DNA from: Tannerellaceae bacterium
GTDB lineage: Bacteria > Bacteroidota > Bacteroidia > Bacteroidales > Tannerellaceae
DNA: 35,457 bases
Reading direction: 5' to 3'
NCBI GenBank assembly: GCA_031285925.1
Contig: JAITVG010000112.1
Location: 1 to 35,457, forward strand
Shown here: positions 33,377 to 35,457 of the stretch, in pieces
Layout: each line of letters opens with the position of its first letter
Numbering within the stretch: position 1 is the first letter of the stretch
The notes under the pieces: generated by a model
What the model was told of the DNA's origin: nothing
Seen by the model: only the letters and a program-made list of their open reading frames with translations
Database searches by the model: none
Made by a program: the position numbers and the translations under genes

Positions 33377-35457
33377 ATGGAATACAATTTCAAGGCAATT
33401 GAGAAGAAATGGCAGAAGTGCTGGAAAGACAATGAAGTTTATAAAGTAACGGAAGACAAAAGTAAGCCAAAATACTATGTGTTGGACATGTTTCCTTACC
33501 CGTCGGGGGCGGGATTGCATGTGGGGCATCCGCTCGGATATATAGCTTCCGATATTTATTCCAGATATAAAAGGCTGCAAGGATTTAACGTGTTGCACCC
33601 GATGGGATACGACGCCTACGGTTTGCCTGCCGAACAGTACGCAATCCAGACCGGACAACACCCGGCCATCACTACCAATAAAAATATAGAACGCTATCGC
33701 GGGCAAATGGATAAAATAGGTTTCTCGTTCGACTGGAGCCGCGAAGTCCGTACATCCGAGCCGGAATATTACCACTGGACGCAATGGGCTTTTATCCGAA
33801 TGTTCAACAGTTACTACTGCAACGACACGAAACAGGCACGCCCGATCGAAGAACTGATCCAATCTTTCGAACATTCCGGAACAGAAGGAGGGCTTAACGT
33901 TGCCAACGGAGGTAAATATACGTTCACGGCCGAAGAATGGCGAGATAAGAACGACAGGGAAAAACAGGAAATACTGTTAGACTTCCGTATCGCCTATCTG
34001 GGCGATACGATGGTAAACTGGTGTGCCGCCCTGGGCACCGTGTTGGCGAACGACGAAGTGATCAACGGCGTTTCCGAACGGGGCGGTTATCCGGTGGAAC
34101 AAAAGATAATGCGCCAATGGTGTCTTCGCGTATCTGCTTATGCGCAGCGGCTATTGGACGGACTGGAAAGCATCGACTGGACCGAATCGCTGAAAGAAAC
34201 CCAACGCAACTGGATAGGCAGGAGCGAAGGGGCGGAGATTATATTCAACCTCTCCCCCAACCCCTCTCCACAAGAGAGGGGGGATGAGAATGCCAAAGGG
34301 TATTTTACAAAAACCATTGATCCACAAGAGAGGGGGGATGAGAATCCTAAAGGGAAATTTAAGAATACTACTGATTCTCGAAACTGGAAATTATTAATCG
34401 ATATAGCCAAGGAGTATCGTTCAAATCAAACTGAGGCGGAAGATTTATTGTGGCAGGAATTAAGAGCCGGAAAAATTGATTATAAAATAAGAAGGCAACA
34501 TATCGTAAATGGTTACATTGCAGACTTTATCAATTTGGAAAAATCTGTAATTATTGAGATTGATGGAGGAATACATTCTACTCCCGAACAAAAGGAAAAA
34601 GATCAATTACGCACGGAAATTTTAAACGACAACGGCTTCAGTGTAATTCGCTTTACCAATAAAGAGGTATTAGCCTCTCCATCCCATGTAGCAAAAAAAA
34701 TCAAGAATCATCTCGAAGCTATCCCATCCCCCCTCTCTTGTGGAGAGGGGACGGGGGAGAGGTGCTTTACCGTCTTCACCACCCGAGCCGACACGATCTT
34801 TGGTGTCACCTTCATGGTATTGGCGCCCGAAAGCGAATTGACCGACATGCTTACTACCCCGGAACAGCGGGAAGAAGTGGAAGCCTATAAAAAAGCAACC
34901 AAAAAGAAAACCGAACGCGAACGTATCGCCGACAGGAAAGTGACCGGCGTCTTCTCCGGTTCATACGCGATCAATCCGTTGACCGGCGAAGCCATCCCCG
35001 TATGGATCAGCGATTATGTGCTTGCAGGATACGGAACGGGAGCAATCATGGCGGTTCCGGCGCACGACAGCCGCGACTATGCTTTTGCGAAACATTTCAA
35101 TCTGCCCATCGTCCCTCTGATCGAAGGATGCGACGTATCGGAAGAAAGTTTCGATGCCAAAGAAGGTATCATGATGAACTCTCCGCAAATGGGTAAGGGC
35201 ATTGAGGGAGGATTGGTACTGAATGGGCTGGAAGTAAAGGAAGCCATTGCGAAAACGAAAGCTTACGTGGAAGAAAAGAGGCTGGGCAAGGTAAAGGTAA
35301 ACTACCGCCTGCGGGATGCGATCTTTAGTCGCCAGCGCTATTGGGGCGAACCGTTTCCCGTCTATTATGATGCCGACGGCTTGCCGCAAATGTTGCCTTT
35401 GGACAAGTTGCCGCTGAAACTTCCGGAAGTAGACCGTTTCCTTCCCACGCCGACCGG
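33377..35457 (+). CDS. leuS: Leucyl-tRNA synthetase with in-frame DUF559 nuclease-like insertion, 3' partial
   Basis: Class I enzyme that charges tRNA-Leu. Hand translation shows one frame open from ATG 33377 through the window end (693 codons); the KMSKS region lies beyond the edge. The Rossmann start MFPYPSGAGLHVGHPLGY carries the HIGH-type motif HVGH at 48-51. MGYDAYGLPAEQYAI and MVNWCAALGTVLANDEV follow. After QRNWIGRSEGAEIIF (276-290) the CP1 editing domain would normally continue within about ten residues to FTVFTTRADTIFG. Here that motif is at 464-476, pushed away by about 170 inserted residues. Beyond it the editing domain is normal (SGSYAINPLTGEAIPVWISDYVLAGYGTGAIMAVPAHDSRDYAFA). The insertion is bounded by inverted repeats and contains a complete DUF559 domain. 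Confidence 0.93.
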   Translation, partial: MEYNFKAIEKKWQKCWKDNEVYKVTEDKSKPKYYVLDMFPYPSGAGLHVGHPLGYIASDIYSRYKRLQGFNVLHPMGYDAYGLPAEQYAIQTGQHPAITTNKNIERYRGQMDKIGFSFDWSREVRTSEPEYYHWTQWAFIRMFNSYYCNDTKQARPIEELIQSFEHSGTEGGLNVANGGKYTFTAEEWRDKNDREKQEILLDFRIAYLGDTMVNWCAALGTVLANDEVINGVSERGGYPVEQKIMRQWCLRVSAYAQRLLDGLESIDWTESLKETQRNWIGRSEGAEIIFNLSPNPSPQERGDENAKGYFTKTIDPQERGDENPKGKFKNTTDSRNWKLLIDIAKEYRSNQTEAEDLLWQELRAGKIDYKIRRQHIVNGYIADFINLEKSVIIEIDGGIHSTPEQKEKDQLRTEILNDNGFSVIRFTNKEVLASPSHVAKKIKNHLEAIPSPLSCGEGTGERCFTVFTTRADTIFGVTFMVLAPESELTDMLTTPEQREEVEAYKKATKKKTERERIADRKVTGVFSGSYAINPLTGEAIPVWISDYVLAGYGTGAIMAVPAHDSRDYAFAKHFNLPIVPLIEGCDVSEESFDAKEGIMMNSPQMGKGIEGGLVLNGLEVKEAIAKTKAYVEEKRLGKVKVNYRLRDAIFSRQRYWGEPFPVYYDADGLPQMLPLDKLPLKLPEVDRFLPTPT
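34249..34286 (+). repeat. Left 38-bp terminal inverted repeat
   Basis: In reverse complement it equals 34725-34762 at 36 of 38 positions; the only difference is AA versus GT at positions 11-12. It contains a hairpin CCCCTCTC-CACAA-GAGAGGGG at 34261-34281. In frame it encodes LSPNPSPQERGD-type residues. Confidence 0.9.
34267..34374 (+). repeat. 54-bp in-frame tandem duplication
   Basis: Copies 34267-34320 and 34321-34374 begin with the same TCCACAAGAGAGGGGGGATG. Each encodes an 18-residue unit of the form PQERGDEN-x-KG-x-F. The repeat includes the inner half of the left inverted repeat. Confidence 0.88.
34725..34762 (-). repeat. Right 38-bp terminal inverted repeat
   Basis: Contains the mirror hairpin CCCCTCTC-TTGTG-GAGAGGGG (34730-34750). 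In the leuS frame it encodes IPSPLSCGEGTGER, immediately before the editing-domain motif. Confidence 0.9.

What the first reader, a model, noticed from the sequence alone, without database searches (positions are those of the whole stretch)
34249..34762. A nuclease-domain element lives in frame inside the LeuRS editing domain
The leuS frame stays open across about 170 extra codons that encode a complete DUF559 (PD-(D/E)XK-like) domain with its Asp and Glu-x-Asp residues. It sits between GRSEGAEIIF and FTVFTTRADTIFG, which in LeuRS are normally separated by about ten residues. An essential editing enzyme therefore carries a nuclease-like module. This could be a selfish homing-type element that tolerates coding insertion by staying in frame, or a module with a new role.
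Basis: partly seen in the sequence, partly recalled or inferred. Interest (0 to 1): 0.93.

Follow-up and report, generated by a model that had tools for sequence, protein, structure and literature searches.

The report
Nuclease parasite living inside essential LeuRS
A 516-base DNA element with hairpin ends and an intact nuclease-family domain sits in frame inside the gene for leucyl-tRNA synthetase of a relative of Parabacteroides, and kindred elements sit in frame in other housekeeping enzymes across its phylum; it likely spreads by cutting uninterrupted copies of its host gene and is predicted to be translated as part of the enzyme, without splicing.

The parts
33377..35457 (+). leuS, 5' two thirds, cut by the contig end; host gene of the element
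   Evidence: Pfam tRNA-synt_1 and LeuRS editing domain; C-terminal part on contig C28
34248..34763 (+). the element, 516 nt, in frame in leuS
   Evidence: ends ACCTCTCC..GGAGAGGT as in the scattered palindromes
34248..34289 (+). left terminal inverted repeat; hairpin core CCCCTCTCCACAAGAGAGGGG at 34261-34281
   Evidence: core folds at -14.2 kcal/mol, z -6.5 against 200 single-base shuffles
34722..34763 (+). right terminal inverted repeat, 93% complementary to the left; hairpin core 34730-34750
   Evidence: last 34 bases identical to the PM6-13 element end
34267..34374 (+). two tandem copies (54 nt, 83% alike) of the inner left end
34400..34714 (+). DUF559 (PD-(D/E)XK/Vsr-like) nuclease-family domain
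34523..34525 (+). codon of the first active-site-type Asp
   Evidence: Asp in 120 of 121 in-host domains
34556..34564 (+). Glu-x-Asp codons of the active-site motif
   Evidence: Glu in 121 and Asp in 120 of 121 in-host domains
34764..34792 (+). right junction: leuS resumes (C)FTVFTTRAD; most empty relatives of the family read FTIFTTRAD

Best explanation
The insert is an element with hairpin ends and an intact DUF559 nuclease-family domain that sits in frame inside leuS; it is likely selfish, is predicted to be translated as an unspliced surface domain of LeuRS, and likely spreads by cutting uninterrupted leuS copies, whose repair would then copy the element in. Shown by sequence: the open frame, the palindromic ends, the kept active-site residues, a fixed LeuRS site (and a few recurrent sites in other hosts), empty and filled close relatives, insert trees that conflict with host trees, short copies of the ends without DUF559 elsewhere in the genome, and kin in other enzymes. 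Inferred: that the nuclease is active, that it cuts the empty site, that the ends are recognised as hairpins, that one relative's loop is a scar of a lost element, and that LeuRS works with the domain in place. Living in frame in a conserved enzyme would protect the element, because careless deletion would damage the host gene; the C/T-rich ends lack stop codons in 11 of 12 frames, so they can be read through almost wherever they land. Rarer jumps to other genes would found new lineages.
For: Same site: all 31 LeuRS in which both junctions were found, of 37 among 120 listed proteins; MetH 74 of 80 domains at one site. Patchy: of 56 genomes with a match, the window's included, 4 filled, 51 empty, 1 only partly covered; filled PM6-13 is sister to empty G003, and filled/empty needs 7 changes on the LeuRS tree. 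Mobility: insert data reject the LeuRS tree (AU p 6.5e-5) and the reverse (p 4e-28); L071/L073, from two families, have insert dS 0.47 against leuS dS 1.9 and 2.2 (synonymous differences 0.35 against 0.69 and 0.71), with sharp edges. Ends held as DNA: 68/68 outer bases identical to PM6-13 while the DUF559 DNA is 72% and leuS flanks 79-82%; in 7 of 7 pairs the synonymous differences of both end regions are below those of the domain. Domain under purifying selection: dN/dS 0.05-0.14 in the three pairs with dS under 1, 0.20 in one near saturation. Copies of the ends: 30 sites of the 19-base core in the genome at up to 3 mismatches, two of them in this element, 0 for the reversed control. Generality: of rows under E 1e-24 other than the window, 27 of 29 lie in frames over 300 codons (order, 393 genomes) and 28 of 33 in frames of 380 or more (phylum, 395 genomes), counted from the listings. 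Hosts by Pfam or motif. Homing kin: I-Bth0305I (3r3p) by sequence and fold.
Against: No activity was measured. No co-conversion of leuS flanks beyond a few codons was seen, where classical homing often converts more (recalled). No target-site duplication was found. Insert and host distances still correlate (Mantel r 0.73), so part of the pattern is shared descent. The palindrome core also occurs in genomes whose leuS is empty (G003, 12 sites) or unchecked (G435, 15), so something else may move the ends. Stand-alone DUF559 genes often have inverted repeats too. The insert has no room for the extended DNA-binding regions described for I-Bth0305I. The full LeuRS model was too poor to use.
Confidence: 0.62

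Rival explanations
1. A REPIN-like palindromic element is the mobile unit, moved through its hairpin ends by a transposase elsewhere or by single-strand intermediates; the DUF559 nuclease is cargo or acts on the hairpins, and site choice is set by tolerance of the host loop and not by cleavage of the empty gene.
For: Short elements with the same ends and no DUF559 are many; inverted-repeat score of 14 or more beside DUF559 in 22 of 45 stand-alone, 13 of 27 in-host and 10 of 13 named loci against 5 of 324 controls; at one of two intergenic sites looked at, sister strains hold different palindromes; insert transfer has sharp edges.
Against: Near-invariant active sites in 121 in-host domains suggest that the nuclease is needed; insert lineages keep largely to one gene and site, which free transposition would not predict.
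Confidence: 0.25
2. A domesticated nuclease domain that gives LeuRS and other enzymes a stable new role, inherited with the host gene.
For: Purifying selection on the domain and correlated insert/host distances.
Against: 51 of 56 genomes with a match are empty; tree conflict; same domain in unrelated enzymes; palindromic ends conserved as DNA; a likely scar where it was lost.
Confidence: 0.06
3. The insert is removed from RNA or protein, or hopped over by ribosomes, so LeuRS itself never carries it (intron, intein or translational bypass).
For: Hairpin ends could in principle serve bypassing; inteins and introns also favour conserved genes (recalled).
Against: No Rfam match at E up to 1 in 33000-35457; no intein family among the Pfam matches; the frame stays open through the insert in the filled LeuRS copies read, which removal would not require, although protein-based searches favour open frames.
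Confidence: 0.05
4. Assembly error or pseudogene with an intact leuS elsewhere.
For: The window contig ends in leuS and the bin is 80% complete.
Against: Same insertion on a 190,872-base contig of an isolate and as the only LeuRS match in genomes G004, G037 and G054, each given as 99% complete.
Confidence: 0.02

Closest known systems
Rickettsia palindromic elements (RPE)
   Same: palindromic DNA inserted in frame in many unrelated protein genes as translational fusions (PMC10969869, passages)
   Different: RPEs are about 150 bp and no nuclease is mentioned in the passages seen; this element codes its own nuclease-family domain and keeps to recurrent sites across genera
EDxHD homing endonucleases (I-Bth0305I)
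   Same: related catalytic domain; a recurrent site in a conserved gene, patchy presence
   Different: I-Bth0305I has extended DNA-binding regions (PMC3943268, passages) and is named a mobile intron protein in the PDB; here no intron was found and no such regions fit
Inteins with homing nucleases
   Same: in-frame, nuclease-bearing, in conserved enzymes (recalled)
   Different: no splicing domain found; the element's ends are DNA palindromes
REPINs and RAYTs
   Same: two inverted hairpins around a spacer, many non-autonomous copies, a nuclease-type gene tied to the repeat family (PMC3116915, abstract)
   Different: REPINs are described as extragenic and tied to tyrosine transposases; here the gene is DUF559 and it resides inside protein genes
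Stand-alone DUF559 proteins (3hrl) and Vsr endonuclease
   Same: same fold; stand-alone DUF559 genes often have inverted repeats beside them
   Different: in-host copies cluster on the tree (6 label changes against 27 shuffled), though the loci were picked by likeness to the window and 7 stand-alone copies fall in the main in-host group

Membership tests
DUF559 (PF04480) | profile score over the curated cut-off | tested here: met
   103.2 bits against cut-off 20.6
DUF559 (PF04480) | PD-(D/E)XK-type residues | tested here: met
   Asp and Glu-x-Asp in the window and in 120-121 of 121 in-host domains; motif assignment recalled
Homing endonuclease element | conserved site in the host gene, with empty alleles in close relatives | tested here: met
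Homing endonuclease element | lateral spread independent of the host gene | tested here: met
   AU test; L071/L073
Homing endonuclease element | co-conversion of flanks | tested here: inconclusive
   only a few codons at the junctions differ as a block
Homing endonuclease element | cleavage of the empty allele | not testable with these tools
   needs an assay
Intein | Hint splicing domain | tested here: not met
   no such family among Pfam matches at E up to 0.01
Group I/II intron | ribozyme core | tested here: not met
   no Rfam match up to E 1 in 33000-35457
REPIN/RAYT | inverted hairpin pairs in many copies | tested here: met
REPIN/RAYT | RAYT (tyrosine) transposase as partner | not tested
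   no search for transposases in this genome was run
Rickettsia palindromic element | in-frame insertion in unrelated protein genes | tested here: met
   (unspliced state inferred from open frames)
Rickettsia palindromic element | sequence kinship with RPE families | not tested
   RPE sequences were not compared

The most novel reading that the evidence does not exclude
A new class of mobile element: a hairpin-ended homing parasite that never splices. It survives as a foldable extra domain in the loops of universal enzymes (LeuRS, IleRS, ValRS, MetRS, MetH, RecG, UvrA and more), uses the host's own expression to make its nuclease, and invades the same few sites again and again across Bacteroidota, with one in-host locus even in a Dehalococcoidia bin, and with palindromic repeats as its non-autonomous offspring.
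Probability: 0.5. Interest if true: 0.95.

Novelty: new variant of a known kind. Interest (0 to 1): 0.88.

Why it matters
Homing parasites of conserved genes are thought to depend on self-splicing to be harmless (PMC3943268 says that this association frees them to invade conserved sequences; passage). If this element is translated in place, it shows another way: be a tolerated domain. It would also offer a mover for a common class of palindromic repeats in Bacteroidota, explain odd DUF559 fusions in annotations of tRNA synthetases and MetH, and give natural maps of loops in essential enzymes that accept a whole extra domain.

Tried and rejected
AlphaFold model of full-length LeuRS with insert had pTM 0.34 and was not used; whether the insert leaves the editing pocket free is open. 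The insert maps between residues 236 and 243 of T. thermophilus LeuRS 1h3n by sequence. Co-conversion around the PM6-13 insertion: 32 of 360 bases differ from G003 within 70 codons left and 50 right of the site against 54 of 1215 elsewhere, but the bins concerned also vary between empty copies, so I claim none. Target-site duplication at two intergenic elements: no clean empty site in the relatives. Plasmid and phage collections: 39 and 3 records match, all under 60% identity; the 15 plasmid rows listed reach 45% at most. Rfam found no intron. Only 120 of 205 hits were listed and examined. Papers: DUF559 is in 14 papers and together with 'inverted repeats' in none; COG2852 in 4 (that it is the COG of DUF559 is recalled); searches on in-frame palindromes, homing nucleases and synthetases listed nothing on this element by title and start of abstract; passages or an abstract were seen of three papers only.

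Full report
WHAT IS THERE. The window is a whole contig (C260) of an 80%-complete assembly of 2.82 Mb. leuS begins at 33377 and runs open to the contig end; its last part lies at the start of contig C28. Inside leuS, 34248-34763 is a 516-nt block with terminal inverted repeats of 42 nt (93% complementary) around a DUF559 domain at 34400-34714. Each end can fold as a hairpin (left core CCCCTCTC-CACAA-GAGAGGGG, -14.2 kcal/mol, z -6.5; left arm z -6.0, right arm z -3.3; single-base shuffles). Of six frames only the leuS frame is open across the block. Empty relatives of the same family have eight codons there (KVKDSDIE and variants). By sequence the site lies between residues 236 and 243 of T. 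thermophilus LeuRS, just before the stretch matched by Pfam's LeuRS editing domain.

NOT AN ARTEFACT, NOT A PSEUDOGENE. The LeuRS query finds no other leuS in the assembly. Genome G004 carries the same element in its only LeuRS match (E up to 1e-50); its locus is contained exactly in a 190,872-base contig of the isolate Parabacteroides sp. PM6-13 (Tannerellaceae by NCBI taxonomy). P0002, from Parabacteroides sp. PFB2-12, has the same LeuRS part, is 1095 residues long and keeps HVGH, KMSKS and FTTRADT (that these are the synthetase signatures is recalled).

RECURRENT SITES, MANY HOSTS. Searching the insert inside proteins of LeuRS length found 205 proteins, of which 120 were listed and examined: 37 LeuRS, 79 MetH, one UvrA, three glycosyltransferases (names of Pfam numbers recalled). 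In all 31 LeuRS in which both junctions were found the insert lies between GRSEGA.. and ..FTTRxDT; six others are partial or did not match the pattern. Of 80 MetH domains 74 lie at one site before NIGERCNV; four could not be placed by the rule and two, in one protein, lie elsewhere. In 393 genomes of the order, 100 match at E 1e-12; of rows under 1e-24 other than the window, 27 of 29 lie in open frames longer than 300 codons, whereas the weaker rows are mostly stand-alone genes of 120-190 codons (counted from the listing). In 395 genomes of the phylum 63 match at 1e-17; of 77 rows other than the window 44 lie in frames of 380 codons or more, and 28 of 33 under 1e-24. The 27 in-host loci fetched, window included, read as LeuRS 15, IleRS 4 (one in G001, of the window's genus), ValRS 1, DNA methylases 4 (type ISP 2, HsdM 1, N6_N4 1), polysaccharide enzymes 2, DegT 1. 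The 29 loci read as MetH 8 (another site, before ATVKGDVHDIG), LeuRS 7 (four at this site, three at a second), RecG 4, methylmalonyl-CoA mutase fusion 2, UvrD-like 2, HsdM 1, M23 peptidase 1, stand-alone 4 (nine of the 29 by Pfam, the rest by motif or likeness). Of the 14 named loci nine are in hosts, among them MetRS in a Bacteroidota and a Ferruginibacter bin, HsdM in an Ignavibacteria bin and PyrF in a Dehalococcoidia bin (bins may hold strays); five are stand-alone. So LeuRS, IleRS and MetH each have more than one accepted site. Several host genomes are listed with one contig, such as G663 and G568 (RecG), G700 (MetH) and G494 (LeuRS).

IT MOVES. Among 60 genomes, the window's included, 56 have a LeuRS match: 4 filled (G000, G004, G037, G054), 51 empty, 1 only partly covered. 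On a LeuRS tree of 71 rows, filled against empty needs 7 changes, at least 6 forced by starred branches; filled PM6-13 is sister to empty G003 (filled rows are over-sampled, as many came from the insert search). Their leuS differ at 54 of 1215 bases away from the site and 32 of 360 near it. In 43 filled rows (duplicates, P0120 and rows with a short left part left out) insert data reject the LeuRS tree (AU p 6.5e-5) and LeuRS data reject the insert tree (p 4e-28); still, distances correlate (Mantel r 0.73), so descent and transfer both count. L071 and L073, from two family groups, have insert dS 0.47 against leuS dS 1.9 and 2.2, and the likeness ends near the insert's edges. On the tree of 122 domains a UvrA insert groups with three LeuRS inserts (98*) and a MetH insert next to them (88) inside a weakly held LeuRS group (81); host labels need 6 changes against 36 shuffled. 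L044 keeps HLSPPQEGS at the site, which I read as a collapsed, in-frame scar (inference).

WHAT IS UNDER SELECTION. The active-site Asp, Glu and Asp are kept in 120, 121 and 120 of 121 in-host domains, a His in 121. dN/dS of the domain is 0.05-0.14 in the three pairs with dS under 1, 0.05 and 0.20 in two with dS over 1, and not computable in two saturated pairs. The outer 34 bases at both ends are identical, 68 of 68, between window and PM6-13, although the domain DNA is 72% and leuS flanks 79-82% identical. In 7 of 7 pairs the synonymous differences of the left and of the right end region are below those of the domain, at 10-42 codons each; in several pairs the ends are far from identical. 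So the ends look held, or renewed, as DNA and the middle as protein.

A FAMILY OF PALINDROMES. The 19-base core occurs at 30 sites in this genome, two in this element (up to 3 mismatches; reversed control 0); 20 of the 30 form ten inverted pairs, nine of them 46-110 bases apart (counted from the listing), with the same outer ends where I read them. Whether they lie in genes was not worked out. In 78 family genomes at up to 2 mismatches the two known to carry the LeuRS element have the highest counts (22 and 17), but G435 (15, leuS not checked) and G003 (12, empty) follow and 61 have none; the reversed control hit twice in all. Inverted repeats beside DUF559 exceed background for in-host, stand-alone and named loci alike (13/27, 22/45, 10/13 against 5/324; loci with under 150 bases of flank left out). 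The ends differ in sequence between copies. Of the 12 frames of the two 42-base arms one has a stop.

MECHANISM. I commit to a homing-type selfish element that stays unspliced. Shown: anatomy, distribution, transfer of the insert without its host gene, selection on domain and ends. Inferred: cleavage of the empty site, repair from a filled copy, full-length translation, a working LeuRS. The main rival is movement by the hairpin ends, REPIN-like, with the nuclease acting on hairpins or riding along; sharp edges and different palindromes at one intergenic site in sister strains suit that rival, while gene- and site-faithful lineages and near-invariant active sites suit homing. The two may be combined.

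NOVELTY. RPEs give the in-frame palindromic precedent (PMC10969869, passages), EDxHD enzymes the nuclease precedent (PMC3943268, passages), REPINs the hairpin-pair precedent (PMC3116915, abstract). No paper listed by my searches joins them; the library lacks most subscription papers.

Noticed in passing
L002:174-1005 (G000 contig C86): The genome's second DUF559 gene, stand-alone, sits among a different palindrome family (TCCTCCTTGGATAAGGAGGA.. / GGAGGTGGTTGGA) with a nearby short palindromic element of like sequence.
   Followed up: partly
L162:3-3707 (G001, same genus): A same-genus genome with an empty leuS site carries a DUF559 insert in frame in IleRS instead, at a site used in three other genomes.
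   Followed up: partly
P0025 (Flavobacterium MetH): One MetH protein carries two DUF559 inserts at two sites with yet another end peptide (APPAPKGGA).
   Followed up: no
L156, L178, L179: One intergenic site holds different palindromic sequences in three strains of the genus, as if elements replace one another.
   Followed up: partly
L165, L166: Some short elements lie in the middle of a larger near-perfect palindrome (CACGGAGG..CCTCCGTG type), so palindromes are nested.
   Followed up: no
P0020 and L100, L191, L199, L210: LeuRS has a second accepted site before the TMPG(F/W/Y)AGSS motif: DUF559 inserts in four loci and a short end fragment in P0020.
   Followed up: partly
L110:2812-4119: A Dehalococcoidia bin carries a DUF559 insert in frame in orotidine 5'-phosphate decarboxylase, outside Bacteroidota if the bin is clean.
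   Followed up: no
window 34267-34374: Tandem 54-nt duplication of the left end, in frame; this copy is longer than the PM6-13 element (516 against 471 nt).
   Followed up: partly
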